A stretch of DNA of 64,000 nt from Pedobacter lusitanus (GTDB taxonomy: Bacteria; Bacteroidota; Bacteroidia; Sphingobacteriales; Sphingobacteriaceae), in assembly GCF_040026395.1 (NCBI RefSeq), contig NZ_CP157278.1, positions 1,178,001 through 1,242,000 on the forward strand, read 5' to 3'. Shown here piece by piece: positions 10,392-34,496 of the stretch. A program made the translations under genes and the position numbers. The notes beneath the pieces are model-generated. The model ran no database searches. It saw only the letters and a program-made list of their open reading frames with translations, and was not told the DNA's origin. The first letter of the stretch is position 1. Every line of letters starts with the position of its first letter.

Positions 10392-10433
10392 TTGATCAGT
10401 TTCCTTTATAAAGTTGATCAGTTCCTTTATAAA
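10391..10433. repeat. Tandem 22/21-bp duplication over the NRPS stop codon
   Basis: Two adjacent near-identical copies (10391-10412 and 10413-10433), each beginning GTTGATCAGT and ending CCTTTATAAA. They differ by one T. The second copy contains the NRPS stop codon (10427-10429, minus strand), so the duplication does not alter the NRPS frame. It may be a replication slippage product. Confidence 0.7.
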
Positions 10434-13400
10434 TCAGTATAACAAACCAGGTGAGCTTTAAGACAGGATGCCAGGGTAAGTGCATGTTTATTTTTCACCA
10501 TAGAAAAATGATCACCGGGCACTGTATAAACTGCAATATTTGATGCATGAGCTGCCCAGCCCAGCCCTTCTTCATAATCCGTCCAGTTTTCTTCTCCGGC
10601 TTTAACCACAACAGTCAGGGCTTTAACCTTATCTCTTACGGGATGATCTATCTGTACGTTGGTCATTTGTAAATCAAGCAATCTTAAAGTGAAAGCAATA
10701 TCTTCTGTTTTAAGATCGGTATGGTTATACATGAAATCAGTTACAAATTCCATTAGCTCCTGATCCGGAACTGCAGCTATTGCTTTAGTCAGTTCATCTA
10801 CCCATACCGGATATGGTGGCTGTACCAGATGATAGTAACCCAAAACTTTCAGCAACAGCTCTTCCCTGTTTCCTGACGATTCTGCTTCCTGCCGTAAACA
10901 TGCCGGTGCATCCAGAATTCCGATCAGGTCAACCTGTTCTCCCTGCTGCTCCAGCTGCAAAGCCATTTCATAAGCGACCCGGCCACCAAAAGAATGTCCG
11001 ATCAACCGGTAAGGTCCTTCGGGTTGTATTGATTTGATCCAGCTGATGTTCATTTCCGCGATAGCATCCATCTTATCCAATGGTTTCTCCTCTTTAAATA
11101 AACCTATCATCTGGATACCATAAACAGCTCCGCTTTCTTCCAGACCTTTGGCCAGCTCATCGTAACTATCACTGATCCCGTCCGAACCAGGTATAATAAA
11201 TATAGGTTCCTCAGTCCGCCCTGAATTCAGCAGAATCAGATGTTCATTACCGGTCTCATATAATTGCCGCTGTAACATTCCCGCCAGCATACTAATTGTT
11301 TTATTGATCAGCAAGTCCTGCATTTGTATTTTGTAGCCTAATTTCCTGATCGGATTCAATACGCGCATAGCTAACAAAGAGTGTCCGCCCAGATCGAAAA
11401 AGCTGTCATGAACTCCTATGGGAGATACATGAAGCAGTTCTTCCCAAATGATAACGAGTTTTGATTCCAGTTCATTTCCTGCGGGAACATAACTGGTACT
11501 CAACTGATCTTTGGCAACTGCCGACGGTAATGCTTTTTTATCCAGTTTACCATGTGAGGTTAACGGAAGTCCTTCGAGTTCTACAAATACACGCGGAACC
11601 ATATATTCAGGCAGCTGGGTTTCCAGATGTGAAACCAGATTCTCCTTAGCAAAAGATTCTACCGGAACCACATAACAAATCAACTGATTATTACCGGAAT
11701 TATCTGCATGTGCCATCACTACAGACTGACTGACCAGACCAGTTTGCTGAACTGCAGATTCGATTTCCCCCAGTTCAATACGATAACCACGAACCTTCAC
11801 CTGATCATCTTTTCTGCCTATAAATTCTATATTGCCATCGGCAAGCCATCTTCCGGTATCTCCTGTTTTATATAAGCGTCCTCCTCTTCCAAAACGATTA
11901 TCGATAAATCGTTCACGGGTCAGCTTCTCCCTGTTAAGGTAACCACGGGCAACACCAGCTCCACCGATACAAATTTCACCCGGCACCCCTGCAGGTAATA
12001 AATTATCTGCAGTATCCAGTATATAAACCTGCACATTTTCAACAGGCTTACCAATTGGCAGATATTCTGTATCACTCAGCTCATGATCGTACTTATAGGT
12101 AGTAGCAAATACGGTACATTCAGTAGGACCATAGGCATTATAAAAATTGAGTTCAGTTTGTGCAGTCCAGCTCTGAGCAAGTGCAGTTCCACAGCGTTCT
12201 CCGCCAGCGGTTATATGTCTTAAACCTGATGGAACTTTGTCTGCAGGTATATTTCTCAGAAAACCGGGTGTGGCCAGCATATAGGTAACCTGTTCTGTAT
12301 TCATGACAGCAATAACAGCATCAACATCCATCTGTACTTCCTGAGCTATCAGAACCAGGCCGGCACCATTCAGCAAAGCCATAAATAACTGCTCTACTGA
12401 AGCATCAAAAGTATAATTTGAGAATAGCAGTACCCGGTCTTCATTAGTCAGAGTCAGCTTTTTTTGCCAGCCAAAGATCATATTGTGTACGTTCTGATGT
12501 TCTATCATCACACCTTTGGGCTGCCCCGTTGAACCCGAAGTGTAGATGACATAACATAAATGGTCTGCCTGAAGATCAGTCACCACTGCTGCGGAAGAAC
12601 CTTTAGAAATTGCTTCCAGATCTCCATCTACCGAGATCAGCCGGATACCTTCATTGTGTTTAAGCAAATCCCTGTTGTCCTCATCAATGACCACTATTTG
12701 TGCCCCGGTATCCGAAAGTATAAAACTAATACGTTCCTGAGGATAGGCAGGGTCAACAGGCACATAAGCCCCGCCTGCTTTCAAAATACCCAATATGCCT
12801 ATAATCATCTCCATTGAACGACCTGTACAAATCGGAACCAGCATGTCTTCCCTGACTCCGGCATTGCGCAGATAATGTCCCAGCTGGTTACTTTTCTGCT
12901 CAAGCTCCCGATAGGTTATCTGCTGGTCTGAATAAATCAATGCGATAGCATCAGGACTCTGATTGACCTGTCTGTTAAATAAATCGACCAGTGTCAGTTC
13001 ACCAGGATATAATGCTATTGTTGCATTAAAAGCATGAAGCAGGCTTAATTCTTCTGCAGGTAATATTGGTGTAGCTGCTATTTTCTCCTGATAATGATCC
13101 AGATAGGCATCCAGCACACGATCAAAATAAACATGTATGTCTGCCAGTGTTTTACCACATTTAAGTTCTTTACCCAACCTGTAGTTTACAAACAACATAT
13201 CTCCTGTTGTACTTACTGAACAGTCCAGATGGGTATTGGTCACTTCAGAACTTTCCATTTCCAGGATATCCTGTTCAGACTGGAGATAATCCAGCTGTTC
13301 AAATAACCCGCTTTCGCCTTCCATCTGATTGTAAACATGAAAGTTTATATAGTTGAAAATCGCATCGAAAAACGGATTACCGTTGGATGCCTGTTCACCA

Positions 13401-16400
13401 GTCAGTCTGGCTATCTCCGATAATGGCATCCGGTCCCGCTCTTTCAGCGATGTCAACTGCTGCTCAACACGTTCAAAATAGTCCTTCCAGCTTAGATCAG
13501 AGTCCTGTCCAATAAAACGGAAAGGTATAGTATTCAGAAAACATCCCAATACCTTATCGCCATCTTCAGTCAGCGGACGACCATTGGTCACTACACCCAG
13601 CGTAACTTCCCGCTCTGCGGTCAGCATACTCAGCATGTACTGATAGGCTGCCAGAAAAACCCCTTTTAAACTTAGCCCATCTGCCTGGGTTCTGAATTTC
13701 AACCGGTTCAGGAAACTCTTATCATAACCTTTGACCAGGTCATCATCAACTACAGTCTCAGTAAATATGTCAAGACGTTTATAATCAGCTAATGACGCTG
13801 TCCAGAACTCACGGTTGGTATCATTACGTTTTTCAGCGATACTTTCTATGACAAAATCACGGTAATTTGCTTTCAGCAATGGTAAACTCCCAGCTTCTCC
13901 CTTCTCCAGCAACGTGCCATAAACATTGTTAAGTTCAGTTGTAAATGAGGCTACACTCCAGCCATCAAGCATGGCATGATGAAACTGGAATACCAGGATA
14001 TGTTCTTTCAAAGTCCGGAACATACTCATCCGCCATAATCTCCCATGATGGACAACAAAAGGAAGACCCCGCTCTGCTGCCAGATAACTGCTGAAATAAG
14101 CACTTAGTTCATCATTTTTTAACCCGCTGATATCGTAATAAGTCAAATCTGCCTCCAGCTCTTTGTAAACCACCTGTAAGCCCTGTGTATCTATATGAAG
14201 GTCAAACTGGGTACGCAAAACTGAATGTTTGGAAATCATCTGTTTTAACGCCAGTTCAAATACAGTCCGGTCTAATGATAAAGGTAGTTTATAAGTAATC
14301 TGATCATGATAAACTGCCAGTTCAGGATTGATCTGAGAAGTATAAACCATACCGCTCTGAATATCACTCATTGGATAGATATCTTCTATTTCAGCACCGG
14401 CTATGAGGTCAGGACTGTTTTTCAGTTCAGGTAATAATCGCGTACGCAGGACTTCCAGCTCGGATACTACCGTATCACGAATCTGTTTCCCCGGATCTTC
14501 GGCTGCTGCCTGTCCGGAATCAATCAGTGCCGACAAGCGACTGATTGTTGAGCATTCATACAGGTCGTATAAGCGGATTGTATCGTTAAATGTCTTGCGC
14601 AAACGGCTGATTACCCCGATTGCCATAATCGAATCGCCTCCCAGTTTAAAGAAGTCATCATGAATACCAACTTCGTCAAGTCCAAGTGATAAAGCCCATA
14701 TTTCACTTACTTTCTGTTCGGTCTCTGTTTGTGCTTCCTGACTGTCTGTTCTGACAATTTCAATATGATTTACATCTGGCAACGCTTTTTTATCAAGCTT
14801 GCCATTTATGGTTAACGGAAATTTTTCCAGCTCCAGAAATACATGAGGCACCATATATTCGGGTAAATGTGCTTCCAGATAGGTTACCAGCAAATCTCTG
14901 TCAAACCGTTGTTTTTCATTGGCTACAACATAACCGATCAGTCTTTTCTGACCGGATTCATCTGCATGAGCTAACACTACACAAGCACTAACTAAACCAC
15001 TTTGCTGAACAGCATTTTCTATTTCCCCCAATTCTATACGATAACCACGGACTTTTACCTGATCATCCCTGCGGCCAATAAACCCGATGTTTCCATCGGC
15101 AAGCCATCTGCCTATATCGCCGGTTTTATATAAGCGTCCACCCGGTATTTTCCCAAAAGGATCAGCTATAAATCTTTCAGCAGTAAGCTTTTCCTGATTC
15201 AGATAACCCCTGGCCACACCTGCACCACCCACATAAATTTCGCCCTGCACACCGACAGGCACTGGTTGTCCGTAATTATCCAATACGTAAGCCTGGCGGT
15301 TGTTCAAAGGCCGCCCAAGCGGAATCTGCTCTTTATACATATCACCTACTATGCGGCAGGTTAATGAAAAAGTTGTGTTCTCAGTAGGTCCGTAGCCATT
15401 GATAATAATCTTATCGGGATAAACACTGCGGAAACGGTTGATATGAGAAACAGACAATTTCTCTCCTCCTACCATAATGGCTGATAAACTCTCAAATATA
15501 GCTATATCCACATCAACCAGCTGATTGAACCATCCTGAAGTAAACCACATCACTGTTACACCATTACTGGTAATCACTTCTTTTAATAAGTCATTATCCG
15601 TTAAACTGGACGAAGGACATAATACCAGACGCCCGCCGTTGAGCAGCATCCCCCAGTATTCAAATGTTGTTGCATCAAAAGACGGAGAACCCGCAGACAG
15701 AATAGCATCCGAAGAACTTAATCTGACATAGTTTGTACCAGCAATCAAACTGGTTACATTTCCATGTTCTACCAGAACACCTTTAGGCTGACCGGTAGAA
15801 CCTGAGGTATACATCACATAACATAAATGGTCAGGACGAAGGTCTGTCATTACAGGTGCTATAGATTCCTGAGCAATTATTTCCCGGTCTTTATCTATTG
15901 CAATGACCCTGATCCCAGTATAATGATCCAGCAAATGCAGATTACTCTCCATACTGACTACTATATCCGCTCCCGTATCAGTAAGCATATAACTGATCCG
16001 CTCCTGAGGATAAGCTAAATCTACCGGTACATAAGCTCCGCCCGCTTTCAGAATACCCAGAATACCGATCATCATATCCGGTGAACGGTCAATACAGATC
16101 GGAACCAGCTTATCTTCCCGGACCCCTGCCTTACGCAGATAATGTCCAAGCTGATTACTACGCTGATCCAGCTCTCTGTAGGTAAGCTGCTGATCCAGGT
16201 AAACCAATGCAATTGCATCAGGACTCTGATTAGCCTGCAACATAAACAGATCAACAAGTGTCTGATCTCGTGGATAAGCTGATACCCTGGCATTAAAGGT
16301 ATACAGCAATTCTTCCCGCTGTAATTTACGCAGCATAGGCAACTTATCTATCCCCTGCTCCGGAGACGACACGATTGACCTGAGTAGCTCCTGATAATTA

Positions 16401-17347
16401 CTGAACATGCGCTCTATGGTTGCCCGGTTAAACAGATCAGTACAATACTCTACACCGATATGCAATGTTCCGGTTCCTTCTACTATAGACACGTTCAGAT
16501 CAAACTGACTTGTGGTATGCCCGGTTTTTTGTTCTGCCAGAACAGCTTTTCCCAACCGGAATTCCGGTACTTCAGGGATATTCTGCACCGTAAATATGAC
16601 CTGATACAAGGGGTTACGGCTTTTATCACGCTCCTGTCCAACGGCCTCAACAACACGTTCAAAAGGTACATCCTGATGTTCATAAGCCCCCATTGTTGTC
16701 TCTTTTACCTGTTGCAGAAAATCCAGGAAAGAAGGATTGCCACTCAGATTACTCCGCAGGGCAAGTGTATTGGCAAAAAAGCCAATCAGCCCCTCCAGTT
16801 CCTGACGGGTACGTCCGGCAATCACACTGCCCACACAGATATCATCCTGACCACTGTAACGATGAAGCAGGATCTTGAAAGCTGATAACATAGTCATATG
16901 CAATGAAGCACCCTGTTCACGTGATAACCGCTGTATACCTGCAGATAATCTGGCATCAACAGGAAACACAGCCATTGCGCCATGTGTGCTTTGAATTGAC
17001 GGACGTGGGTAGTCCGTAGGTAATTCCAGCTGACTTACACCATCCAGACGATCTTTCCAGTAAGTAATACGACGGCCCCAGTGAGATTCTTCCTGGGCAC
17101 GCTGCCATATAGAATAGTCTCCATACTGTAATGGCAGTGCCGGAAGCTCTGCTGATATCCCAGTTATATTCATCTCATAGAGGGCAACCAGCTCTCTGAT
17201 CAGCACAGACAGCGACCAGCCGTCTGCTGCAATATGATGTAGAATAAGTACCAATATGTGCTCCTGATCAGAAATCCTGATCAGATGGGCACGCAGCATA
17301 TGATCTGTACGCAGATCTATGACTTTTGTACAGAGTGATAATAACAA
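10427..17347 (-). CDS. NRPS, modules 4-5 with thioesterase (frameshifted 5' part in the next ORF)
   Basis: C-terminal 2306 residues of the second synthetase. The true protein would be about 2480 residues; its first part lies in 17317-17865 in another frame. In joined numbering, C4 has its HHIAADG active site near 210. A4 spans about 530-1040 and T4 ends in LGGDSI near 1078. C5 (HHAMLDG) is near 1296, A5 spans about 1620-2120 and T5 (LGGHSL) is near 2160. A type I thioesterase follows with nucleophile motif GHSFGG near 2290 and histidine in PGDHFSMV. The A4 pocket read by eye is D-A-F-W-M-G-G-T-F-K, one step from the known valine code. A5 reads about D-A-E-L-T-G-A-V-F-K, acidic at position 239, suggesting a basic or His residue. 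No epimerisation domain is present. The thioesterase would release or cyclise the peptide. Confidence 0.92.
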   Translation of the reverse strand: MLLSLCTKVIDLRTDHMLRAHLIRISDQEHILVLILHHIAADGWSLSVLIRELVALYEMNITGISAELPALPLQYGDYSIWQRAQEESHWGRRITYWKDRLDGVSQLELPTDYPRPSIQSTHGAMAVFPVDARLSAGIQRLSREQGASLHMTMLSAFKILLHRYSGQDDICVGSVIAGRTRQELEGLIGFFANTLALRSNLSGNPSFLDFLQQVKETTMGAYEHQDVPFERVVEAVGQERDKSRNPLYQVIFTVQNIPEVPEFRLGKAVLAEQKTGHTTSQFDLNVSIVEGTGTLHIGVEYCTDLFNRATIERMFSNYQELLRSIVSSPEQGIDKLPMLRKLQREELLYTFNARVSAYPRDQTLVDLFMLQANQSPDAIALVYLDQQLTYRELDQRSNQLGHYLRKAGVREDKLVPICIDRSPDMMIGILGILKAGGAYVPVDLAYPQERISYMLTDTGADIVVSMESNLHLLDHYTGIRVIAIDKDREIIAQESIAPVMTDLRPDHLCYVMYTSGSTGQPKGVLVEHGNVTSLIAGTNYVRLSSSDAILSAGSPSFDATTFEYWGMLLNGGRLVLCPSSSLTDNDLLKEVITSNGVTVMWFTSGWFNQLVDVDIAIFESLSAIMVGGEKLSVSHINRFRSVYPDKIIINGYGPTENTTFSLTCRIVGDMYKEQIPLGRPLNNRQAYVLDNYGQPVPVGVQGEIYVGGAGVARGYLNQEKLTAERFIADPFGKIPGGRLYKTGDIGRWLADGNIGFIGRRDDQVKVRGYRIELGEIENAVQQSGLVSACVVLAHADESGQKRLIGYVVANEKQRFDRDLLVTYLEAHLPEYMVPHVFLELEKFPLTINGKLDKKALPDVNHIEIVRTDSQEAQTETEQKVSEIWALSLGLDEVGIHDDFFKLGGDSIMAIGVISRLRKTFNDTIRLYDLYECSTISRLSALIDSGQAAAEDPGKQIRDTVVSELEVLRTRLLPELKNSPDLIAGAEIEDIYPMSDIQSGMVYTSQINPELAVYHDQITYKLPLSLDRTVFELALKQMISKHSVLRTQFDLHIDTQGLQVVYKELEADLTYYDISGLKNDELSAYFSSYLAAERGLPFVVHHGRLWRMSMFRTLKEHILVFQFHHAMLDGWSVASFTTELNNVYGTLLEKGEAGSLPLLKANYRDFVIESIAEKRNDTNREFWTASLADYKRLDIFTETVVDDDLVKGYDKSFLNRLKFRTQADGLSLKGVFLAAYQYMLSMLTAEREVTLGVVTNGRPLTEDGDKVLGCFLNTIPFRFIGQDSDLSWKDYFERVEQQLTSLKERDRMPLSEIARLTGEQASNGNPFFDAIFNYINFHVYNQMEGESGLFEQLDYLQSEQDILEMESSEVTNTHLDCSVSTTGDMLFVNYRLGKELKCGKTLADIHVYFDRVLDAYLDHYQEKIAATPILPAEELSLLHAFNATIALYPGELTLVDLFNRQVNQSPDAIALIYSDQQITYRELEQKSNQLGHYLRNAGVREDMLVPICTGRSMEMIIGILGILKAGGAYVPVDPAYPQERISFILSDTGAQIVVIDEDNRDLLKHNEGIRLISVDGDLEAISKGSSAAVVTDLQADHLCYVIYTSGSTGQPKGVMIEHQNVHNMIFGWQKKLTLTNEDRVLLFSNYTFDASVEQLFMALLNGAGLVLIAQEVQMDVDAVIAVMNTEQVTYMLATPGFLRNIPADKVPSGLRHITAGGERCGTALAQSWTAQTELNFYNAYGPTECTVFATTYKYDHELSDTEYLPIGKPVENVQVYILDTADNLLPAGVPGEICIGGAGVARGYLNREKLTRERFIDNRFGRGGRLYKTGDTGRWLADGNIEFIGRKDDQVKVRGYRIELGEIESAVQQTGLVSQSVVMAHADNSGNNQLICYVVPVESFAKENLVSHLETQLPEYMVPRVFVELEGLPLTSHGKLDKKALPSAVAKDQLSTSYVPAGNELESKLVIIWEELLHVSPIGVHDSFFDLGGHSLLAMRVLNPIRKLGYKIQMQDLLINKTISMLAGMLQRQLYETGNEHLILLNSGRTEEPIFIIPGSDGISDSYDELAKGLEESGAVYGIQMIGLFKEEKPLDKMDAIAEMNISWIKSIQPEGPYRLIGHSFGGRVAYEMALQLEQQGEQVDLIGILDAPACLRQEAESSGNREELLLKVLGYYHLVQPPYPVWVDELTKAIAAVPDQELMEFVTDFMYNHTDLKTEDIAFTLRLLDLQMTNVQIDHPVRDKVKALTVVVKAGEENWTDYEEGLGWAAHASNIAVYTVPGDHFSMVKNKHALTLASCLKAHLVCYTDL
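15624..15694. repeat. 71-bp exact repeat, copy in A4
   Basis: Identical, base for base, to 22293-22363 in A2 of the other synthetase. It encodes the core A3-A4 region of the valine-type adenylation domain, including the FDATTFEYW pocket segment. Flanking sequence is also very similar, which indicates recent module duplication or gene conversion. Confidence 0.85.
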
Positions 17348-17865
17348 TGGCGCCAGCCCGATTCCCCACCCTTATAATCATTTATTTTATCCAGTTTCCA
17401 GCCATCCTTCTCCAGAACAAATTGAAAAGGCTGCCCCCCGGCATCCTGACGGATTACTGTTCTTAATATTTCATGACGATTAATTACATCATTTATTGAT
17501 TTTTCCAGTGCATCCACACTAAATGTGCCTGATAAACGGAAATGCATTGGCATATGGTAATGTGTGCTTCCGTTAAGCTGATCTATCAGCCAAAGGCCCT
17601 TCTGCCCATAAGACAATGGAATATGGTCTTTAGCTGTACTAACCGGAATCGGAGAAAGATCAAAATCTTCACCGGATGAAACACTATTACGTAAAAAATC
17701 AATTATTTCATTTTTATATTTCCTGATCTCTTCGAGTAGCTCAGGGTCTATATCCTTATGTTCACCCAAATCAAGTTTGAGACTATCATTCTCCAGAAAG
17801 ATAGCAACGCCATGATTACGGGCCTTTTTCAACACACTGACAACCTGGTTAAAGTCGGTATTCAT
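17317..17865 (-). CDS. NRPS N-terminal fragment: TubC-type docking domain and half of C4
   Basis: A 182-residue frame that is the 5' part of the second synthetase. Residues 1-60 match a TubC_N-type docking domain (LKKARNHGVAIFLENDSLKL, then DPELLEEIRKYKNEIIDFL), which should receive the C-terminus of the first synthetase. From about residue 75 the condensation domain begins (HIPLSYGQKGLWLIDQLNG, then NRHEILRTVIRQ). After GGES the frame drifts into unrelated residues and stops. The paralogous C2 continues GGEAGLDNLLAAL, and the other frame here reads GLAPLLLSL, so one base is missing. As it stands, C4 lacks a continuous reading frame. The start ATG lies 31 bp after the first synthetase stop. 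Confidence 0.85.
   Translation of the reverse strand: MNTDFNQVVSVLKKARNHGVAIFLENDSLKLDLGEHKDIDPELLEEIRKYKNEIIDFLRNSVSSGEDFDLSPIPVSTAKDHIPLSYGQKGLWLIDQLNGSTHYHMPMHFRLSGTFSVDALEKSINDVINRHEILRTVIRQDAGGQPFQFVLEKDGWKLDKINDYKGGESGWRHCYYHSVQKS
17357..17367 (-). other. Single-base frameshift site within C4
   Basis: The frame of the N-terminal fragment must move by -1 (equivalent to one missing base) to join the downstream NRPS frame. The best restoration adds one G to the GGG run at 17357-17359 and gives GGESGLAPLLL, matching the paralogous domain. The nearby GGGG run (17364-17367) is the other candidate. No canonical X-XXY-YYZ slippery heptamer is present. Confidence 0.8.
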
Positions 17866-17896
17866 AAATAGGTTATTTATTAGGTTAGTTTTTTAT

Positions 17897-20800: not shown

Positions 20801-23800
20801 TTCATCATTGCTCTTTGCGCTGATATCTGTAAACGGTATAGCTGCATCCACCTGTTTATAAACTAGTTGTATCCCCTGAGTATGTATATGAAGGTCAAAC
20901 CTGGTTCGCAAAATAGAGTGTTTGGAAACCAATAGCTTTAGTGCCTGCTCCAAAACAGCCTTATTCAATATCAAAGGCAGTTTAAAAGTGAGCTGATCAT
21001 GATAAACAGCCTGTTCGGGATTTAGCTGGGAGGCATAAACCATACCACTCTGAATATCACTCATCAGATACAGATCTTCTATTTCCTTCTCGTCATCAAG
21101 TTCAGGCAGCACGCGTAAACGCAGGGATTCGAATTCCGCAGCTATAGTGTCCCGGACTGGTTGTCCCGGCTCTTCTTTCTTTGCTTCATGCCCTGAGTCA
21201 ATCAGTGCTGACAGGCGGCTGATCGTTGAGCATTCATAGAGATCATATAAACGAATACTATCATTAAATACCTTTCGTAAGCGGCTGATTACTCCAATAG
21301 CTATAATTGAATCACCGCCAAGTTTAAAGAAGTCCTCATGAATACCGGGTTCATCAATACCCAGAGATAAAGCCCATATTTCTTTTACTTTTTGTTCCGT
21401 CTCTGTTTGTTCTTCCTGATGGTCTGTTCTGACAATTTCTACACGATTAATATCCGGCAATGCCTTCTTATCCAGCTTGCCATTTGCAGTTAATGGAAAT
21501 ACATCCAGCTCCAGAAATACATGAGGCACCATATAATCCGGTAAACGTGATTCCAGATATTCAATCAACAGATCTTTATCAAACTGCTTCTCCTTAGCCA
21601 CAACATAACCTGTCAGTCTTTTCTGGCCGGATTCATCAGCAGTAGCCAATACAACACATTGACTAACCAGACCACTTTGATCAATAGCATTTTCAATTTC
21701 TCCCAGTTCTATACGATAACCACGAATTTTTACCTGATCATCCCTCCGGCCTGTAAATTCGATATTTCCATCAGCAAGCCACCTGCCTATATCGCCGGTT
21801 TTATATAAACGCCCGCCATTCACAAACGGATCTGCTATAAATCGTTCCGGGGTTAAATCTTCATGATTCAGATAACCTCTGGCCACACCTGCACCACCCA
21901 CATAAATTTCGCCCTGTACCCCAACAGGAACCAGCTGCCTGTAACTATCCAGCACATAAGCCTGCCGGTTGTTCAAAGGCCTTCCCAGTGGGATATTGGC
22001 TTTTGACTCCCTCTCCTTAATCAGGTAACTCAATGAAAAAGTCGTGTTTTCAGTAGGTCCGTACCCATTGATCACGGCCTTTTCCGGATAAGCCTGACGG
22101 AAACGATTGATATGAGGTGCTGATAATTTCTCCCCTCCCACCATTACTGACGACAGGCTTTCAAACAGATCTATCTCTACATCAACCAGCTGGTTAAACC
22201 AGCCTGAAGTAAACCACATGACTGTTACACCATTACTGGTAATTACCTCCTTTAATAATTTATTATCGGTTAAACTGGATGAAGGACATAAGACCAGACG
22301 CCCGCCGTTGAGCAGCATCCCCCAGTATTCAAATGTTGTTGCATCAAAAGACGGAGAACCCGCTGATAAGATGGCATCTGAAGAGCTTAGCTTAATATAA
22401 TTTGCACCTAAAATCAGACTGCTCACATTTCCATGTTCTACCAGAACACCTTTAGGCTGACCGGTAGAACCAGAGGTATACATCACATAACATAAATGAT
22501 CAGGACGAAGATTAGCCCGCACAGGTGCTTTAGATTCCTGAGCAATTATTTCCCGGTCTTTATCTACTGCAATGACCCGGATTCCTGCATATTGATCCAG
22601 CAAATGCAGATTACTCTCCATACTGACCACTATATCCGCTCCCGTATCGGCAAGCATATAGCTGATCCGCTCCTGAGGATAAGCAGAATCTACCGGTACA
22701 TAAGCTCCACCCGCTTTCAGAATGCCCAGAATACCGATCATCATATCGGGTGAACGGTCAATACAGATCGGAACCAGCTTATCTTCCCGGACCCCCGCCT
22801 TACGCAGATAATGTCCGAGCTGGTTACTGCGCTGATCCAGTTCTCTGTAGGTAAGCTGCTGATCCAGGTAAACCAATGCAATTGCATCAGGACTCTGATC
22901 AGACTGCAACATAAACAAATCAACAAGTGTCTGATGATGAGGATATGCTACAGCAGTTGAATTAAAATCATATAACAATTCCTGCTGTTGTGATTTACCT
23001 AACATAGGTAACAGATCTATCTCTCTGGCTGGTGATAATACGATCGACCTGAGCAATTCACGATAATTACCAAACATCCGGTCTATAGTATCAGCCCTAA
23101 ACAGATCTGTACAATATTCTACACTGATTTCTATCCCGTTACTACTTTCCACTACAGACACATTCAAATCAAACTGACTGGTTGTGCGTCCGGTTTGTTT
23201 TGCAGACAAAACAGCCTCCCCTAGCCGGAACTCAGGTACTTCAGGAATATTTTGTACTGTAAAAATGACCTGGTATAAGGGGTTACGACTCTTGTCACGC
23301 TCCTGTCCAACTGCTTCGACAACACGTTCAAAAGGTACATCCTGATGTTCATATGCACCAAGAGCAGTCTCTTTCACCTGCTGCAGAAAATCCACAAAAG
23401 CAGGATTAGCGCCAAGATTACTCCGCAGCGCAAGCGTATTGGCAAAATAACCGATCAGTCCTTCCAGTTCCTGACGGGTACGTCCGGCAATCACACTACC
23501 CACACAGATATCATCCTGACCACTGTAACGATGAAGCAGGATCTTGAAAGCTGATAACATGGTCATATGTAATGTAGCTCCGTGCTGACGCGATAAGGAC
23601 TGCAATCCGGCAGCTAATCCCGTATCAATCGTGAAAACCGACATCGCTCCGTTAGTACTCTGTATAGATGGACGTGGATAGTCCGTAGGTAATTCCAGCT
23701 GATCAACACCAGCCAGACGATTTTTCCAGTAATCTATGCGAAGTCCCCACTGGGAATCTTCCTGATTACGCTGCCATACTGAATAGTCTCCATATTGCAG

Positions 23801-26800
23801 TGGCAATGCAGGTAATACAGGTGATACTCCTGTTGTATTCATCTCATAGAGCGCAACCAGTTCCCTGATCAGCACAGAAAGAGACCAGCCATCTGCAGCA
23901 ATATGATGAAGAATCAGAACCAGTATATGCTCCTGGTCTGATATACGGATCAGATGCCCCCGCAGCATATGATCACTATGTAACGCTATAACCGCCGAAG
24001 ATAGTGCTGCCAGTAAATTATCCAGGCCAGCCTCTCCGCCACTGTAATCTGTTATCCTGTCCAGAGACCAGCTGTCTTTCTGCAAAACAAACTGAAATGG
24101 ATTACCATTGATATCCTGGTGAATAACCGTCCTTAGTATCTCATGCCGGTTGACTACTTCATTTATAGATTGTTCCAGTGCGTCTATGCTGAATGTACCC
24201 GATAAACGGAAATACATTGGCATATGATAATGCGTACTTCCATTGAGCTGATCAATTCGCCAAAGTCCTTCCTGACCATAAGATAACGGAACATGTTCTT
24301 TTCTGAGATTTACGGGGATCGGTACATTGTCAGCATCAGCCGATACATTTTGTGTAATATACAATGCCAGCTTCTCTATATTTTTGCATTGAAATATTGT
24401 TTTGACAGGGACATTAATACCCATTTCTTTCTGGATATAACCACTAACCCGCATAGCCAGTAAAGAGTGTCCGCCAAGCTCAAAAAAACTATCCCGGATT
24501 CCTACCCTGGATACCTGAAGCAAGCTCTCCCAGATAGCGATAAGTTTTGTTTGCAACTCATTCTCTGCCGGAACATAATTTATATTTAACCGCGCTTTAG
24601 TATCAACTAATGGCAAAGCTTTTTTATCCAGTTTCCCATGAGGAGTCAGTGGAAATTCAGTCAGTTCCATAAATACATGAGGTACCATATATTCCGGTAA
24701 TCTGTTCTCCAGATAAGAGATCAGCTCTTGCTGATCAAAGTTCTGTGCTGAAATGACATAACAAATCAACTGATTGCTGCCAGACTGATCCTCACACGCA
24801 ATAACAACCGTCTGATCCACCAGACCACTCTGCTGCACAGCATTTTCAATTTCTCCCAATTCTATACGATAACCCCGCACTTTAACCTGGTCATCTATAC
24901 GGCCAATAAATTCAATGTTTCCGTCAGGAAACCACCTGCCTATATCACCTGTTTTATACAAACGACCACCTTTTACAAAAGGATCAGCAATAAATTTCTC
25001 TCTGGTCAGCTCATCGCGGTTCAGATAACCACGGGCTACACCTGCACCACCAATCCAGATTTCACCCGGCATTCCCACAGGTAATAAATTACCAGCAGCA
25101 TCTACGATATAAATTTGTGTATTCTTGACAGGCTTCCCGATTGGCAGGTATTTTCCTTCGGCCCTGTTTGTATCGAAATGGTATATAGTTGAGGTTACGG
25201 TACATTCAGTTGGCCCGTAAGCCACATAAAAGTTCAGTCCCGGATTTCCAGTCCACTGCTGCGCCAGTAATGTTGTACAGCGTTCTCCGCCTACCATGAC
25301 ATCTTTTAAACTACCCGGAGCTTTATCGCATGGCACATTTCTTAAAAAACCAGGAGTATTCAATATATAAGTAACCTGTTCCTGAGCAAGTACCGAGACC
25401 AATGCTTCAGTATCCAGTTGTACTTCTTTTGCTATCAGTACCAGACCGGCACCATGTAATAATGCCAGAAACAGCTGTTCAACAAAAGGATCAAAAGTAT
25501 AGTTTGTAAATGCTGCTATACGATCACCAGGAACAACCTTTAAGAGTTCCTGACGATCAGTAATCATATTCACCACATTTCTGTGTTCTACCATAACCCC
25601 TTTAGGCTGTCCCGTAGAACCCGAGGTATAAATTACATAACCTAAATGATCAGAACGAAGATCTGTCAGTACCGGTTCTGCAGATTCCTGATTAATTCTT
25701 TCCAGATCCCCATCCATCGAAATCATCCGGATATTTACCTGATGAGCCAGCAATGATCTGCTATTTTCATTACCTATTACAATACGGGCATCCGTATCAG
25801 CAAGCATGAAATTAACACGCTCCCGGGGATAATCAGGGTCTATAGGTGCATAAGCCCCCCCAGATTTCAGAATCCCCAATATGCCTATGATCATCTCCGG
25901 CGAACGTTCAATACAAATTGGGACGACCGTATCCTCCCGGACACCTGCAGCACGCAGATAATGTCCCAGCTGGTTACTCCGCTCGTCAAGCTCTCCGTAA
26001 GTTAAACGCTGATCCGCATAAATCAACGCAATTTCTTCCGGATACTGAGCAGCAGCGGAAGCAAACAGATTCACCAGAGTTTTATCCGCAGGGTAAACTC
26101 CGGCAGTTGAATTAAAAGATTGTAAGATGACCAGATCTTCAGCAGTCAATACCGGTACCACATCTTTTTCTTTACTTATAAACGCAGATACCGCTTGCTC
26201 TGGGTTAACCCGGATCTCACCAATATTTTGCTCCAGAGCTGTTGCAAATTGCTTAAAAATATCCAGCAGCTGCTGAACAAGTAAAACGATCTCAGTCTGC
26301 TGAAAGTACTCATGGCGGAATCCAATAACTAATTTTAATGGCTCTTTTTCCGCATAGTCAAACCACATAATTTCTAATGGGGTTTGCTGATGCTTACTAA
26401 ACATCAGGAAATGATCCGTTTGTATATCCGGGCCAAGATCCAGTGATAAATCAAATACGATATGATTAATAATGAAGTCAAAGAAAGGACCATCTAAAGG
26501 GTCATGTTTAAAATGTCTGCTCAGATCGCCACCCAGATAATCGAGATGATCATAATCTTCTTTTTGAGAACGTACTACATCTTTTATAAAGTCAATTAAC
26601 CTGATATCAGACTGATAGTTAGCTAAAAAAGGGACTACACCTGAAAACATCCCGACAATCTCTCTCTGATATCTTTGTTTTCTCTTATGTGCTGTCGTAC
26701 CAAAAAAGGAATTATCCTGCCCGTACATTTTAGCCAGGTAAACTGCCATGGCAGCAATAGTTAAATGCTGTAATCTGGCCTGAGAATCAATTCCTAATTG

Positions 26801-27523
26801 TGCTAACAGAAGCTGTTCATCTTTTTCCAGCGTATAAGTATAAAAACTACTTTCTCTGCCTGATTCACTAAACTGATCATGCTTTCGCTGAACAATAGTA
26901 TCTGGTTTAATTGTTATTTTTTTCTTCCAGTAGTCGCCACTTACGTTATAAGTTTCCGAGCCATAATGAGCCACAGCTTTTTCTACTTCCGCTAAATAAG
27001 AAGGCGCTGTAAAAATCTGCTGTTCGTTATTCAGCAGACTTTTATATTTATCGGAAATATAATTTGTCCATACTCTTACACTATACCCATCAAAAAGTAA
27101 GTGATGGAATTTAAAATAATAATAATGCTCATCATCAGCTGCTTTAAGCAAATAATGTTCAACAAGTAATTTCGTTTTTTCTATCAGAAAAGGCTCATCC
27201 GTCTTATTTTGTATCCAAATACGAATTGCCCCAGAAGGATCAGTATGATCACTAAAATCAAGCTCCTGTACAGCAAAAGGATTGTCCTGATCAACGATAT
27301 GATAATTCGGAGTGAAATCTTCCATTCCGATAGCCATTTTAAAAACATCAAAGACCTGATGGGCTGAGATGACGGCTTCAATTAACTTACCTGTATCAAG
27401 AGGACCTTTAATCTTAAAATAATTATTGATGTTGTAGTGAGGACTATTGACATTAAGCAATTGGTCAATATAGATATCCTGTTGCGCAGGATGCAGTGGA
27501 AAGGCATGAGATGAAAGTGTCAT
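17897..27523 (-). CDS. Three-module NRPS (C-A-T-C-A-T-C-A-T)
   Basis: Intact 3208-residue synthetase that starts the assembly line. C1 (about 5-440, HHLLFDG near 142) has no upstream carrier domain, so it is a starter C domain that may acylate the first residue. A1 is 480-980 and T1 (LGGHSL) near 1018. C2 (HHIAADG) is near 1206, A2 1530-2035 and T2 (LGGDSI) near 2071. C3 (HHALFDG) is near 2286, A3 2610-3110 and T3 (LGGHSL) near 3153. All C active sites and T serines are present. Pockets read by eye: A1 about D-P-E-L-M-G-A-V-T-K, A2 D-A-F-W-M-G-G-T-F-K (valine-like), A3 about D-P-E-D-I-G-A-I-T-K. Glu at position 239 in A1 and A3 suggests basic substrates. There is no TE; the chain passes to the next synthetase, whose N-terminus has a docking domain. 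T2 carries GGDSI, a form usual before epimerising domains, so C3 may be dual-function. Confidence 0.95.
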   Translation of the reverse strand: MTLSSHAFPLHPAQQDIYIDQLLNVNSPHYNINNYFKIKGPLDTGKLIEAVISAHQVFDVFKMAIGMEDFTPNYHIVDQDNPFAVQELDFSDHTDPSGAIRIWIQNKTDEPFLIEKTKLLVEHYLLKAADDEHYYYFKFHHLLFDGYSVRVWTNYISDKYKSLLNNEQQIFTAPSYLAEVEKAVAHYGSETYNVSGDYWKKKITIKPDTIVQRKHDQFSESGRESSFYTYTLEKDEQLLLAQLGIDSQARLQHLTIAAMAVYLAKMYGQDNSFFGTTAHKRKQRYQREIVGMFSGVVPFLANYQSDIRLIDFIKDVVRSQKEDYDHLDYLGGDLSRHFKHDPLDGPFFDFIINHIVFDLSLDLGPDIQTDHFLMFSKHQQTPLEIMWFDYAEKEPLKLVIGFRHEYFQQTEIVLLVQQLLDIFKQFATALEQNIGEIRVNPEQAVSAFISKEKDVVPVLTAEDLVILQSFNSTAGVYPADKTLVNLFASAAAQYPEEIALIYADQRLTYGELDERSNQLGHYLRAAGVREDTVVPICIERSPEMIIGILGILKSGGAYAPIDPDYPRERVNFMLADTDARIVIGNENSRSLLAHQVNIRMISMDGDLERINQESAEPVLTDLRSDHLGYVIYTSGSTGQPKGVMVEHRNVVNMITDRQELLKVVPGDRIAAFTNYTFDPFVEQLFLALLHGAGLVLIAKEVQLDTEALVSVLAQEQVTYILNTPGFLRNVPCDKAPGSLKDVMVGGERCTTLLAQQWTGNPGLNFYVAYGPTECTVTSTIYHFDTNRAEGKYLPIGKPVKNTQIYIVDAAGNLLPVGMPGEIWIGGAGVARGYLNRDELTREKFIADPFVKGGRLYKTGDIGRWFPDGNIEFIGRIDDQVKVRGYRIELGEIENAVQQSGLVDQTVVIACEDQSGSNQLICYVISAQNFDQQELISYLENRLPEYMVPHVFMELTEFPLTPHGKLDKKALPLVDTKARLNINYVPAENELQTKLIAIWESLLQVSRVGIRDSFFELGGHSLLAMRVSGYIQKEMGINVPVKTIFQCKNIEKLALYITQNVSADADNVPIPVNLRKEHVPLSYGQEGLWRIDQLNGSTHYHMPMYFRLSGTFSIDALEQSINEVVNRHEILRTVIHQDINGNPFQFVLQKDSWSLDRITDYSGGEAGLDNLLAALSSAVIALHSDHMLRGHLIRISDQEHILVLILHHIAADGWSLSVLIRELVALYEMNTTGVSPVLPALPLQYGDYSVWQRNQEDSQWGLRIDYWKNRLAGVDQLELPTDYPRPSIQSTNGAMSVFTIDTGLAAGLQSLSRQHGATLHMTMLSAFKILLHRYSGQDDICVGSVIAGRTRQELEGLIGYFANTLALRSNLGANPAFVDFLQQVKETALGAYEHQDVPFERVVEAVGQERDKSRNPLYQVIFTVQNIPEVPEFRLGEAVLSAKQTGRTTSQFDLNVSVVESSNGIEISVEYCTDLFRADTIDRMFGNYRELLRSIVLSPAREIDLLPMLGKSQQQELLYDFNSTAVAYPHHQTLVDLFMLQSDQSPDAIALVYLDQQLTYRELDQRSNQLGHYLRKAGVREDKLVPICIDRSPDMMIGILGILKAGGAYVPVDSAYPQERISYMLADTGADIVVSMESNLHLLDQYAGIRVIAVDKDREIIAQESKAPVRANLRPDHLCYVMYTSGSTGQPKGVLVEHGNVSSLILGANYIKLSSSDAILSAGSPSFDATTFEYWGMLLNGGRLVLCPSSSLTDNKLLKEVITSNGVTVMWFTSGWFNQLVDVEIDLFESLSSVMVGGEKLSAPHINRFRQAYPEKAVINGYGPTENTTFSLSYLIKERESKANIPLGRPLNNRQAYVLDSYRQLVPVGVQGEIYVGGAGVARGYLNHEDLTPERFIADPFVNGGRLYKTGDIGRWLADGNIEFTGRRDDQVKIRGYRIELGEIENAIDQSGLVSQCVVLATADESGQKRLTGYVVAKEKQFDKDLLIEYLESRLPDYMVPHVFLELDVFPLTANGKLDKKALPDINRVEIVRTDHQEEQTETEQKVKEIWALSLGIDEPGIHEDFFKLGGDSIIAIGVISRLRKVFNDSIRLYDLYECSTISRLSALIDSGHEAKKEEPGQPVRDTIAAEFESLRLRVLPELDDEKEIEDLYLMSDIQSGMVYASQLNPEQAVYHDQLTFKLPLILNKAVLEQALKLLVSKHSILRTRFDLHIHTQGIQLVYKQVDAAIPFTDISAKSNDELGSYLQSYLSRERTIPFEVHLGKLWRMSLFQTSKEHILVFQFHHALFDGWSVASFTTELNNLYRELLANGEIKELLPLKASYRDFVMESISEKRNEDNRVFWTTSLIDYKRLDIFTETVVDDNWGKAYELSYLKRLKNRTQADGLSLKGMFLGAYQYMLSMLTADQEVTLGVVTNGRPLTEDGDKVLGCFLNTIPFRFIEKESDVIWKDYFEHVEQQLMSLKERDRMPLMEIAQLTGEQSSSGNPFFDVIFNYINFHVYDQLEGEGGLFAQQGHVQLEEEESATAGGYESTNTFLDCSVSVTGDILVISYHLTRELKSGKTLADIHAYFDRVLEAYLDHYEENIIAVPVLPVHELELLQTFNSTESVYPYNDSLVDLFYAQVRENPDATALIYLDQQLTYRELDQKSNQLGHYLRNAGVREDTLIPVFMDRSPDMIIGILGILKAGGAYVPVDPEYPQERINYMLSDTGAVLVVISERNRSLLEHFTGIRIISVDGDREIFSQESPESVRTDLGPGHLCYVIYTSGSTGQPKGVLVEHRGVVNLICDRKQVLKMTTNDRVLLFSNYTFDPFVEQLFMALLSGAGLVLIPKEIQLDGYSLMEVVEKEKITILDATPSFLTGLMQNSELKHLRYMIAGGERCGTSIAQRWSEDNPELSFYNAYGPTECTITTTVYQYKQHKKEGEYLPIGKPVGNVQIYILDNRGSVLPVGVPGEICIGGAGVARGYLNRDELTRERFVDDHFGEVAGRRLYKTGDVGRWLPDGNIEFIGRIDDQVKVRGYRIEPGEIESVVQQSGLVSRSVILVRADESGNNQLICYVVPAGVFNQENLVAYLESNLPEYMVPHIFVELEALPLTSHGKVDKKALPSAVAKYQMSRAYLPASTELESGLVKIWEELLQVSPVGIQDSFFELGGHSLLAMRMSSCIQKELGINVPVKNIFQCKSIDKLAAYIEELMTKNVRLGVNVISI
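22293..22363. repeat. 71-bp exact repeat, copy in A2
   Basis: Partner of 15624-15694. A second long identity links the C domains: 62 bp ending in AAAGCTGATAACAT is shared around 16831-16892 and 23499-23560. Modules 2 and 4 are therefore close paralogues at DNA level. Confidence 0.8.
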
Positions 27524-27608
27524 GGAAGATGAGTTTTTATCCCCATATATTTCAATGGGGATATAGGTGAGAATTTTAAAAGATGATTTGTTTAGATTAG
27601 TTAATCAA

Positions 27609-29207
27609 TTATTTGTTGTACAGAATTTCTCTTTCTCCAAATAATCGTTCAGCCACTATTCCTCTTCCCCTGCACTCTTCAATTAACTTATTTGACTGAA
27701 CAATAGGATTAGACTCGTCAGTATATTTAATACTGCTGATAAATTCGACCCAGGGCTCCTGTCCCATTGCATACACATAAACCTCTTTCGGATTGAAGAT
27801 ATTAACCAGGGACATCCCTTTTTTACAATCTGACCCTGATAATCTTCTGCTGTTATCCTGATCTCTTGGTAACTTTTGAGGGAGTAATTGTCCGTATAAC
27901 CAGGATAAGGGTGCTCCATCACATTCCATTCCCAGAAAAATAACATCTATATCTCCCAGTCTTCTTTGAATATGCGCATATATTTCAGGCTCCATTATTC
28001 TTGAATCCGCAAAAAATGCCAGTTTAAAATCACCTATCTGAACAAAATAACACGACTTTGTTAAGATATTCAGATCGCTGTGCTCACCAGTAAAAGGTAC
28101 TCCTGTAATAATTGCATCAGCAAATCTGACTGATTCCATTTCACTGATCGAAATTACATTATCAAAACCAATATGATTGAACATCAACTTCAGGTCAGGG
28201 TCCTGAAGTTTTCCGCTGCAGGTACTTGGAACAATAATATTTTTGATCTTATGACGTAACGGCAATAAGGTCTCAAACAGAATATGATCCTGATGATTAT
28301 GTGTAATCAGCACATAGTCAATTGTATCAGGAAGATCCACATCCGAGAAATGATCGACTTTCGAATCATAACCATAATAGCTGATCAGCGGGTCGACCAA
28401 TATGCTGATATCTTTGGTTTCAATTAATATACAGGCATGTCCGAAGTATCGCATACGAATTTTATCACCTGCATATTTTTCATATACCGGAGGAACATCT
28501 GTGGTGAAAAAGGTCTCAAAGAGCGCCGACTGGTCTTCGGTAATCCCCATAATTTTACTGATATATTCAATGGTCTGGGGATTTCTTTTCATTTTAGCCA
28601 GTTCGTCGATACCCGGATGATCAAAAGGTATATCCAAATGCAAAGTATGTTCATCATTTAGTTTTGGCGTACTCAGACAAAATGGTCTGTGATCATTATT
28701 GGTTATCCATAAGGCTAAACTCTGGGAGCCTTTATTGTAATAAGTGCTGTCGTATAAAAGAGGTTCAAAAAATCTGAATCCACCATTATTATTCCGGTCG
28801 TAATATAACTCTACATACCCCTTAAGTTCCTCTGGTACGCTTGCATACATCTCCTCCATTGCAAATCCTTTAGCATCAGATTTCAAGAGCTTATCCAGTT
28901 TATTCACTGCCTTTGAAAATTCCAGAACAGGTTGTTGTTTTGACAATGTATTATCATAAATAGCTTTTACTTCTCCTGCCCGTTCAACCGGTATGTCCAT
29001 AAAAGGGCCACCTCTTAAGTTCGGATTCAGTACAGCTTCTGCATGGAGCTCTGGCGCCATTAAATAGGACTCCATAATAGTCATGTGTCTGCCAACTATG
29101 TTCATAGCAGCTGTTGCGGGAGAGATCAGATGACTCCAGGCGTACCATTTATCGACTAATGGTTCCATTACGACATTGGGCTTCAGGTATACTTCAGTGT
29201 TTTTCAT
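27609..29207 (-). CDS. CmlA-type diiron beta-hydroxylase for carrier-bound amino acids
   Basis: First gene of the peptide operon. It encodes a 532-residue protein with an all-helical/mixed N-terminal half and a C-terminal metallo-beta-lactamase fold. This architecture and length match CmlA, the diiron oxygenase that beta-hydroxylates a T-domain-bound amino acid in chloramphenicol synthesis; FrsH of FR900359 synthesis is another member. The metal motif THNHQDH gives H303, H305, D307 and H308. E375 (GEHSDL) and D401 (FFADSR) complete the set. These six lie two positions before the CmlA ligands as I remember them (H305, H307, D309, H310, E377, D403). The enzyme probably hydroxylates one residue while it is tethered to an NRPS T domain. 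Which residue is unknown. It lies 85 bp ahead of the first NRPS, same strand. It is not a hydrolase of the beta-lactamase type. Confidence 0.85.
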   Translation of the reverse strand: MKNTEVYLKPNVVMEPLVDKWYAWSHLISPATAAMNIVGRHMTIMESYLMAPELHAEAVLNPNLRGGPFMDIPVERAGEVKAIYDNTLSKQQPVLEFSKAVNKLDKLLKSDAKGFAMEEMYASVPEELKGYVELYYDRNNNGGFRFFEPLLYDSTYYNKGSQSLALWITNNDHRPFCLSTPKLNDEHTLHLDIPFDHPGIDELAKMKRNPQTIEYISKIMGITEDQSALFETFFTTDVPPVYEKYAGDKIRMRYFGHACILIETKDISILVDPLISYYGYDSKVDHFSDVDLPDTIDYVLITHNHQDHILFETLLPLRHKIKNIIVPSTCSGKLQDPDLKLMFNHIGFDNVISISEMESVRFADAIITGVPFTGEHSDLNILTKSCYFVQIGDFKLAFFADSRIMEPEIYAHIQRRLGDIDVIFLGMECDGAPLSWLYGQLLPQKLPRDQDNSRRLSGSDCKKGMSLVNIFNPKEVYVYAMGQEPWVEFISSIKYTDESNPIVQSNKLIEECRGRGIVAERLFGEREILYNK

Positions 29208-32717: not shown

Positions 32718-33187
32718 ATGATATACTGGCTGTATTTCTTGATTGATTTTTTTTACAAGAGACAGTCTCCTGGTAGAATTACACGTAATAAAGATTTCCC
32801 GGAGAAGATGGTCACTTGTATCATTATTTGGAATCATTACACATTTACATTGATAAGAGCAGAATTTAAATATTAAATAATAATTACAATTTACAAAATT
32901 TTTACAAATAGAGCAAATAATAATTATAATTTTCAATCGAATAAGTTAACACAAAAAGGTTTTACTAAAATATAGGCTAATCATCCGGATTCCAGCATTT
33001 CTTTCAAAGCTCAAATCAGCACAACTATTGTTTCATAATAAATTAAAAATTAAACCAAATAAAACAAATATTAAACTCATTAATAAATTAGTTATATTGT
33101 ATTTAATCTTCTGAAGTTATAATCTCCCATTCTTTCATAGTCAGACTACTGAATCATGGTAAACCTCATTGTGCAAAAAGAAAAATA

Positions 33188-33772
33188 ATGGCTATTAATC
33201 ATCAAATATTTCAACAACTGATATTGGTCTTGGAAAAACTCATGCCGCTCTCTCTTCTTTTCAAAAAGACGCTGATGGATATGGTATTTGAAGAGCACCT
33301 TAAAAAAGGCACCAGGATTTTATACCAGAGAGAAATCCAAAAAAGACTTTGGTTTATCGTTGAAGGATCAGCAAGAGAATATAAAGAAGATCAGCACCCC
33401 GGTCTTCAGGAGCAAACTGTATGGTTCTGGTTTAATGGAGATTTGCTGTATACCATACCTGGTTTTTTCAGCCAGAATCCTTCAACTTCTACTATTGAAC
33501 TTTTAGAAGATACGCATCTGATTTATCTGGAAATTGAAGATTATCTGCGTTTGGAAAAGGAAACGGCATTCCTGTTTGGAAAAATCAGAGATCACTATGA
33601 ATCATTGAGACAGGAGTACAATACCAATAAATTACATTTAAGCGGTAAAGACAAGTATCTGGAATTGTTTAATGCACACCCGGCGTTGTTTAACAATGCC
33701 AAACAAAAGGATATTGCTTACTTTTTAGGAATAAATCCTAACTCCCTATCCAGGCTCAGAAGGGAAAACTGA
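33188..33772 (+). CDS. Crp/Fnr-type cyclic-nucleotide-binding-domain regulator
   Basis: Transcription regulator of 194 residues of the short Bacteroidota Crp/Fnr type. The effector domain (about 20-125) shows GTRILYQREIQKRLWFIVEGSA and WFWFNGDLLYTIPGFFSQNPS. The C-terminal part contains a recognisable helix-turn-helix (KQKDIAYFLGINPNSLSRLRREN). No Fe-S cysteines are seen, so it is not an Fnr-type oxygen sensor; the effector is unknown. It is divergent from mcrBC across about 470 bp of AT-rich DNA, measured from the preferred McrB start. A MauE-like gene follows 128 bp downstream. Confidence 0.88.
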   Translation: MAINHQIFQQLILVLEKLMPLSLLFKKTLMDMVFEEHLKKGTRILYQREIQKRLWFIVEGSAREYKEDQHPGLQEQTVWFWFNGDLLYTIPGFFSQNPSTSTIELLEDTHLIYLEIEDYLRLEKETAFLFGKIRDHYESLRQEYNTNKLHLSGKDKYLELFNAHPALFNNAKQKDIAYFLGINPNSLSRLRREN

Positions 33773-33900
33773 CCCGAAGGGTCTATTAAATAATCAGTTC
33801 GAATCTAACAATTGACAGGTACGAACTTAACCAAAAACGACTGTAATATCTTCTGATCTTCCTGACATTTAATCCTGGTTACATTAACTAAAAGATTAAA

Positions 33901-34362: not shown

Positions 34363-34496
34363 AGAAATATCAGATACAGCCATAAGCTCAGCTGGGATAA
34401 ATACAGTCCACAATTAGCCGGATGGAAAGGGCTTCAAGGTTTCCGGATGGTAATCAGTCGGTGCATTACAAATGCACTGTTCTAATATCTATAGTC

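What the first reader, a model, noticed from the sequence alone, without database searches (positions are those of the whole stretch)
10427..29207. Five-module NRPS cluster headed by a CmlA-type diiron beta-hydroxylase
Seen: a 532-residue metallo-beta-lactamase-fold protein with the HxHxDH motif plus E375 and D401, matching the CmlA ligand set with a constant offset of two. Two NRPS genes follow on the same strand: C-A-T-C-A-T-C-A-T and docking-C-A-T-C-A-T-TE. Known: CmlA and FrsH hydroxylate T-domain-bound amino acids. Inference: the product is a pentapeptide with a beta-hydroxylated residue, possibly N-acylated by the starter C domain. I do not recognise a described Bacteroidota product with this exact architecture.
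Basis: partly seen in the sequence, partly recalled or inferred. Interest (0 to 1): 0.78.

Follow-up and report, generated by a model that had tools for sequence, protein, structure and literature searches.

The report
Cryopeptin gene cluster, one gene broken
This is a Pedobacter copy of the recently described cryopeptin genes, which make small fatty peptides containing the rare residue dehydrovaline; in this genome one of the three genes is interrupted.

Summary
Window 29207-10427 (minus strand) carries a CmlA-type gene and two NRPS genes making five modules, but the second NRPS is not one open frame: it breaks inside its first C domain (about 17320-17371). The gene is one open frame in 4 of 4 relatives whose locus could be read whole.

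The cluster is crpABC, published in 2025 for the cryopeptins (PMC12181424). Products are linear acyl-Phe-Dhv-Arg-Dhv-Leu (Dhv = dehydrovaline). So it is a lipopentapeptide, but the predicted hydroxyl does not survive. The authors proposed, without an assay, that CrpA hydroxylates valine and that C3 and C5 dehydrate it.

I add sequence support. C3 and C5 group (100/100) with the one C domain of the genome's pedopeptin-type line that follows threonine, the residue seen as 2-amino-2-butenoyl in pedopeptin. Their best solved-structure matches are McyA and AmbE. The T domains before them are GGDSI. A Chitinophaga relative shows six such steps in ten modules.

Verdict: already known, with a better-supported mechanism and two new predictions.

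The parts
27609..29207 (-). crpA: CmlA-type diiron enzyme, 532 aa, proposed Val beta-hydroxylase
   Evidence: Pfam CmlA_N 295.8 bits; PDB 8a90 and CmlA 4jo0; ligand residues
17897..27523 (-). crpB: NRPS, 3208 aa, starter C1-A1-T1-C2-A2-T2-C3-A3-T3
   Evidence: codes
17317..17865 (-). crpC, first piece: TubC_N docking domain and start of C4 (182 aa)
10427..17347 (-). crpC, second piece in another frame: rest of C4-A4-T4-C5-A5-T5-TE (2306 aa)
17320..17371 (-). stretch in which the two crpC frames overlap, i.e. where the frame breaks
   Evidence: stop-to-stop frames; unbroken in 4 of 4 relatives read whole
26183..27511 (-). C1, starter type
   Evidence: groups with C1 of the pedopeptin-type line, 100/100
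22970..24301 (-). C2, ordinary LCL type
   Evidence: tree; best PDB matches Txo2, Txo1
19739..21082 (-). C3, dehydrating type
   Evidence: tree; best PDB matches McyA, AmbE
13043..14386 (-). C5, dehydrating type
   Evidence: tree (row named WIN_C4_13049 there); best PDB matches McyA, AmbE
21194..21412 (-). T2 with GGDSI, carrier of the first Val
14516..14734 (-). T4 with GGDSI, carrier of the second Val
10448..11242 (-). thioesterase domain
   Evidence: Pfam PF00975 109.5 bits

Best explanation
This is the cryopeptin (crpABC) cluster of a Pedobacter cryoconitis-group strain. Proposed working: the starter C domain of CrpB joins a short fatty acid to residue 1 (Phe); modules 2-5 load Val, Arg, Val and Leu. 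CrpA, a CmlA-type diiron enzyme, puts a beta-hydroxyl on valine bound to T2 and T4. The next C domains, C3 and C5, remove water from the hydroxyvaline to give dehydrovaline and condense it with Arg or Leu. The TE frees a linear acyl-Phe-Dhv-Arg-Dhv-Leu. Shown by others: the product structures and loss of product when crpA is replaced. Shown here: cluster identity, A-domain codes, dehydrating-type C3 and C5, carrier type, frame break. Inferred: CrpA's substrate, the order of steps, and that this strain makes no full-length cryopeptin if the crpC break is real.
For: Same genes, order and five modules as crpABC. C3 and C5 group 100/100 with the pedopeptin-type C5 that follows a Thr module, and pedopeptin has 2-amino-2-butenoyl there. 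Best PDB matches of C3, C5 and that C5 are McyA and AmbE, those of C2 are Txo2 and Txo1. T2 and T4 are GGDSI, the type reported before dehydrating C domains. In Chitinophaga rhizophila six of six GGDSI Val-type carriers are followed by this C type and three of three GGHSL carriers by another.
Against: No enzyme was assayed here or in the cryopeptin paper; replacement of crpA by ermR could also silence crpB and crpC (my remark). crpC is broken in this assembly. The tree warns of long branches and a midpoint root. Residues shown to matter in AmbE-C2 are said not to be conserved in other such domains, so no active-site test was possible. SolG, a dehydroalanine NRPS model, does not match the isolated C3 or C5 at E 1e-10.
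Confidence: 0.88

Rival explanations
1. The product keeps one or two beta-hydroxyvalines: CrpA hydroxylates and the C domains only condense.
For: CrpA has the full CmlA ligand set, and the studied CmlA and FrsH products keep the hydroxyl (as the finding says; recalled).
Against: Both positions are dehydrovaline in the isolated cryopeptins; C3 and C5 are of the dehydrating type.
Confidence: 0.04
2. In this strain the cluster is dead: the crpC frame break is real, and at most CrpB intermediates are made.
For: Two frames; other NRPS frames of this genome are long and open, up to 7839 and 6772 aa, which speaks against many assembly errors.
Against: All other parts are open and the codes are unchanged from relatives; a single error in an otherwise sound assembly looks the same. 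No reads could be examined.
Confidence: 0.45
3. CrpA makes dehydrovaline by direct desaturation of Val; C3 and C5 merely accept a dehydro-residue.
For: Iron oxygenases can desaturate (recalled, no call). A tree cannot tell a domain that makes a dehydro-residue from one that accepts it.
Against: In the pedopeptin-type line the related C domain follows Thr, which already has a hydroxyl, and no CmlA gene lies beside that line; AmbE-C2 dehydrates a hydroxylated residue.
Confidence: 0.08

Closest known systems
Cryopeptin cluster crpABC of P. cryoconitis PAMC 27485 and DSM 14825 (PMC12181424)
   Same: crpA-crpB-crpC, five modules, Val at 2 and 4, starter C, no E domain, C3 and C5 of the modified-residue type
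   Different: crpC is in two frames in this window; C4 DNA is only 72-73% identical to the relatives' matches that span crpC
CmlA (chloramphenicol) and FrsH (FR900359) hydroxylases
   Same: CmlA_N domain, HxHxDH plus E and D ligands against CmlA
   Different: here paired with dehydrating C domains, so the hydroxyl is taken to be transient; FrsH was not aligned (38% identity is reported in PMC12181424)
Dehydrating C domains (AmbE-C2, AlbB-C2/C3, LgnD-C2; review PMC10880069)
   Same: sequence match to AmbE, upstream GGDSI carrier
   Different: valine needs a prior hydroxylation; Ser and Thr do not
Pedopeptin-type nine-module line in the same genome (L085, L086)
   Same: one C domain of the same clade, related starter C, a Val module
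   Different: nine modules with an E domain, no CmlA gene beside it

Membership tests
Cryopeptin BGC | crpA, crpB, crpC in this order on one strand | tested here: met
Cryopeptin BGC | five modules with Val codes at positions 2 and 4 | tested here: met
   same codes in G013, G014, G016, and G127 but for one letter of A1
Cryopeptin BGC | intact crpC | tested here: not met
   two frames in the assembly; real mutation or sequencing error not decided
Cryopeptin BGC | makes acyl-Phe-Dhv-Arg-Dhv-Leu | not testable with these tools
   needs culture and LC-MS/MS
CmlA-type diiron beta-hydroxylase | CmlA_N domain and HxHxDH + E + D ligands | tested here: met
CmlA-type diiron beta-hydroxylase | hydroxylates a T-bound amino acid | not testable with these tools
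   needs assay
Dehydrating C domain (C3, C5) | groups with C domains that follow a dehydrated residue | tested here: met
   100/100 with the pedopeptin-type C5; best PDB matches McyA, AmbE
Dehydrating C domain (C3, C5) | upstream T domain of GGDS[I/V] type | tested here: met
   T2, T4 GGDSI in 5 of 5 crp clusters
Dehydrating C domain (C3, C5) | catalyses dehydration | not testable with these tools
   needs assay

The most novel reading that the evidence does not exclude
CrpA serves two assembly lines. On its own line it hydroxylates valine, which C3 and C5 turn into dehydrovaline; in trans it hydroxylates valine 8 of the pedopeptin line, where an ordinary C domain leaves it as 3-hydroxyvaline. 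Support: no CmlA, P450 or TauD match lies beside the pedopeptin-type line in this genome, nor in 18 of the 52 frames listed around it that I scanned. The line was found at 74% identity or more in 4 of 145 Pedobacter genomes (at most 7 candidates scored per genome); all 4 have crpA, and in 2 of them, one being DSM 14825, crpA is the only CmlA_N gene found. In PMC7947920 the pedopeptin strains that make OHVal forms (UP1437, NL19) also make the dehydrovaline peptides, and UP1427, UP1428, UP1429 and UP1431 do neither; its authors suggest a mutated monooxygenase in the pedopeptin cluster. Against: the pedopeptin Val carrier is GGHSL, not GGDSI; this genome has a second CmlA gene; the four UP14xx isolates come from one soil sample and may be one clone; the co-occurring genomes are close relatives.
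Probability: 0.2. Interest if true: 0.62.

Novelty: already known. Interest (0 to 1): 0.33.

Why it matters
The cluster and its product are in print, so this is not a new natural product. What stays open is how dehydrovaline forms. The sequence evidence gives a readable rule: a CmlA-type gene, a Val A domain, a GGDSI carrier, and a dehydrating C domain next. It would explain why valine ends as dehydrovaline in cryopeptins but as hydroxyvaline in pedopeptins of related strains, and it predicts a far more unsaturated peptide in Chitinophaga rhizophila (up to six dehydrovalines).

Tried and rejected
NCBIfam SolG (a dehydroalanine NRPS) had its best stretch on the C3 and C5 modules; the isolated C domains do not match it at E 1e-10, so I dropped it as support. 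Assigning the window to strain PAMC 27485 from the gyrB-rplM distance was inconclusive. The paper reports no pedopeptin-like cluster in PAMC 27485 and this genome has one; another held genome, G014 (one contig of 5.95 Mb, crp present, best match to the pedopeptin probe 47%, 7 of 80 candidates scored), fits better. No strain name is claimed. Whether CmlA genes of Bacteroidota generally travel with dehydrating C domains: not within view. Of the 78 loci L003-L080, 7 (L003, L004, L023, L039, L047, L052, L077) show a C domain of that clade in the stretch held, and in three of these the residue before it is not in view. Literature searches of the held library: CmlA + beta-hydroxylase + Chitinophaga + nonribosomal, 0 papers; cryopeptin, 1 paper; Chitinophaga + dehydrovaline, 0; 8A90 + monooxygenase + diiron, 0; pedopeptin + hydroxyvaline + hydroxylase, only PMC12181424. 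Structure prediction was not used. MIBiG and the papers' supplementary files were not open to me.
Full report
WHAT IS THERE. The window lies in a 6.05 Mb one-contig genome. Among named records the nearest relatives of its CmlA gene are Pedobacter cryoconitis DSM 14825 (92% protein identity) and M2T3 (88%). On the minus strand, 29207-27609 encodes a 532-aa CmlA-type protein (CmlA_N 295.8 bits; PDB 8a90 438.6 and CmlA 4jo0 364.7 bits). 27523-17897 is an NRPS of three modules. The second NRPS is split: 17865-17317 carries a TubC_N docking domain and the start of a C domain, 17347-10427 the rest plus A-T-C-A-T-TE. The two open frames overlap at 17320-17371. A fifth carrier, G017 (M2T3 by the same kind of match), has the locus spread over two contigs and was not counted.

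IT IS A PUBLISHED CLUSTER. Liu et al. 2025 (PMC12181424; abstract, passages, part 1 of section 5, and sections 6-8 seen) describe 'NRPS-4' of the P. cryoconitis branch: crpA (metallo-beta-lactamase), crpB and crpC, five modules, X-Val-X-Val-X. [quoted passage not shown] Two such peptides had been characterised by NMR in 2021 among the 'cluster 5' compounds (PMC7947920; sections 16 and 17 and passages seen). Cryopeptins D and E showed no growth inhibition (MIC over 128 ug/ml) and no inhibition of three cysteine proteases at 20 uM. The authors propose, without an assay, that CrpA hydroxylates Val and that C3 and C5, 'modified AA' by NaPDoS, dehydrate it. The window cluster has the same genes in the same order. 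Its A codes DPELMGAVT, DAFWMGGTF, DPEDIGAIT, DAFWMGGTF, DAELTGAVF equal those of G013, G014 and G016; G127 differs in one letter of A1. Six of 145 Pedobacter genomes, this one included, have CrpA at 88% identity or more; 15 of 145 have a CmlA-like protein at E below 1e-180.

AN INTERNAL CONTROL FOR THE MECHANISM. The same genome has a nine-module line at about 5.935-5.966 Mb (L085, L086). Its codes DIWEMTADD, DAYTVAAVC, DIWQLTADD, DFWNIGMVH, DAWFLGNVV, DIWELTADD, DAWFLGNVV (then E), DAFWLGGTF, DLTKIGHIG fit the order DAPA-Phe-DABA-Thr-Leu-DAPA-Leu-Val-Asp; the residue names are my reading, partly from recall. That is the order of pedopeptin, whose fourth residue is 2-amino-2-butenoyl and eighth Val or OHVal (PMC7979671, passages). 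In a tree of 56 C and E domains (IQ-TREE) the domain of that line that follows the Thr module groups with C3 and C5 of all five crp clusters read (11 rows, 100/100). The other domains of that line fall with crp C1 (first one, 100/100), with crp C2 and C4 (six, 100/99), with another domain that follows an E-like one (ninth), or are E-like (eighth). The tool warned of long branches and a midpoint root; the split between the dehydrating group and the ninth-domain group is weak (96/53). The window's C4, being broken, was left out. PDB matches agree: McyA then AmbE for C3 (171.4, 111.4 bits), C5 (166, 116.4) and the pedopeptin-type C5 (158.8, 121.6); Txo2 and Txo1 for C2 (304.1, 298.3), with McyA and AmbE far lower (82.7, 54.6). 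AmbE-C2 dehydrates its substrate, and the modified-residue clade was first named for C domains of microcystin and bleomycin; such domains follow T domains with GGDS[I/V] rather than GGHSL (PMC10880069, passages and part 2 of section 18). I did not check which McyA C domain is in entry 8jbr. T2 and T4 are GGDSI and T1, T3, T5 GGHSL in 5 of 5 crp clusters. Over the loci in view, 16 of 16 scorable T domains before the 18-member dehydrating clade are GGDSI, against 19 of 119 GGDS before other C or E domains. The T-to-C linker is 27-46 residues in 16 scorable members of that clade, against a median of 16 in 118 domains outside it and outside its 22-member sister group, 11 of which are 30 or longer. 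Upstream A codes of the 18: Val type 11, Thr 1, others 3, not in view 3.

BEYOND PEDOBACTER. In Chitinophaga rhizophila B61 a hydroxylase of 77% identity heads a ten-module line with codes DAIWIGGTF, DPEEIGIIS, DAIWIGGTF, DAIWMGGTF, DAIWMGGTF, DAIWIGGTF, DAIWMGGTF, DALWIGAVI, DAIWLGGTF, DAEDVGEVT, then TE. I read DAIWxGGTF as Val type. Six C domains join the crp and pedopeptin-type dehydrating clade (support 0.982, FastTree); they follow the six GGDSI carriers, all with Val-type codes. The three GGHSL carriers (modules 2, 5, 8) are followed by domains that fall with the LCL group, whose support in that tree is low (0.698). Prediction: an acyl decapeptide with up to six dehydrovalines. No held paper has both 'Chitinophaga' and 'dehydrovaline'. 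The pairing is not general for CmlA genes: 7 of 78 other CmlA loci show such a C domain in the stretch held.

POSSIBLE SHARED USE OF CrpA. The pedopeptin-type line was found at 74% identity or more in G000, G013, G016 and G127, 4 of 145 (at most 7 candidates scored per genome). All four have crpA; their CmlA_N genes number 2, 1, 1 and 3. Around that line in this genome I scanned 18 of the 52 frames listed: a class III aminotransferase, transporters, regulators and others, no P450, TauD or CmlA; one 179-aa frame has a weak glyoxalase/dioxygenase-superfamily match (26.4 bits). No P450 match was found in this genome and its TauD matches lie elsewhere. Chemistry in PMC7947920 fits but does not prove it: UP1437 and NL19 make OHVal pedopeptins and dehydrovaline peptides, UP1427, UP1428, UP1429 and UP1431 neither. 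Against it: the Val carrier there is GGHSL, a second CmlA gene exists here, and the four UP14xx isolates may be one clone. I give it 0.2.

VERDICT. A real feature, correctly read in outline, already published. Added value: the frame break, the internal control for dehydration, the Chitinophaga prediction, and the testable idea of a shared hydroxylase.

Noticed in passing
G000:C1:5935344-5966241 (L085, L086): Nine-module NRPS line whose A codes are colinear with pedopeptin; its fifth C domain is of the dehydrating type.
   Followed up: yes
G000:C1:2042956-2109445 (L081-L084): Second CmlA-family gene (66% to crpA) beside a very large NRPS region; a TauD-type match lies inside the 6772-aa NRPS frame.
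   Followed up: no
window 30160-32936: McrB/McrC-like pair next to crpA on the same strand; no match in the flanks held of G014 and G127, where the SusC/SusD, MauE and cNMP-binding genes of the window (33188-39448) lie near crpA.
   Followed up: partly
window 4226-6433; L001:5296-7500: The GH36 gene lies downstream of crpC in the window but upstream of crpA in DSM 14825 (88.8% identity), so the surroundings of the cluster are rearranged.
   Followed up: no
G127:C1:364080-400453; G016:C1:1128232-1217852: Pedopeptin-type line and crpA lie about 33 kb apart in G127 and about 86 kb apart in G016, but far apart in the window's genome.
   Followed up: no
L136, L137 (Chitinophaga rhizophila B61): CmlA-headed ten-module NRPS with six dehydrating-type C domains; predicted dehydrovaline-rich acyl decapeptide.
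   Followed up: partly
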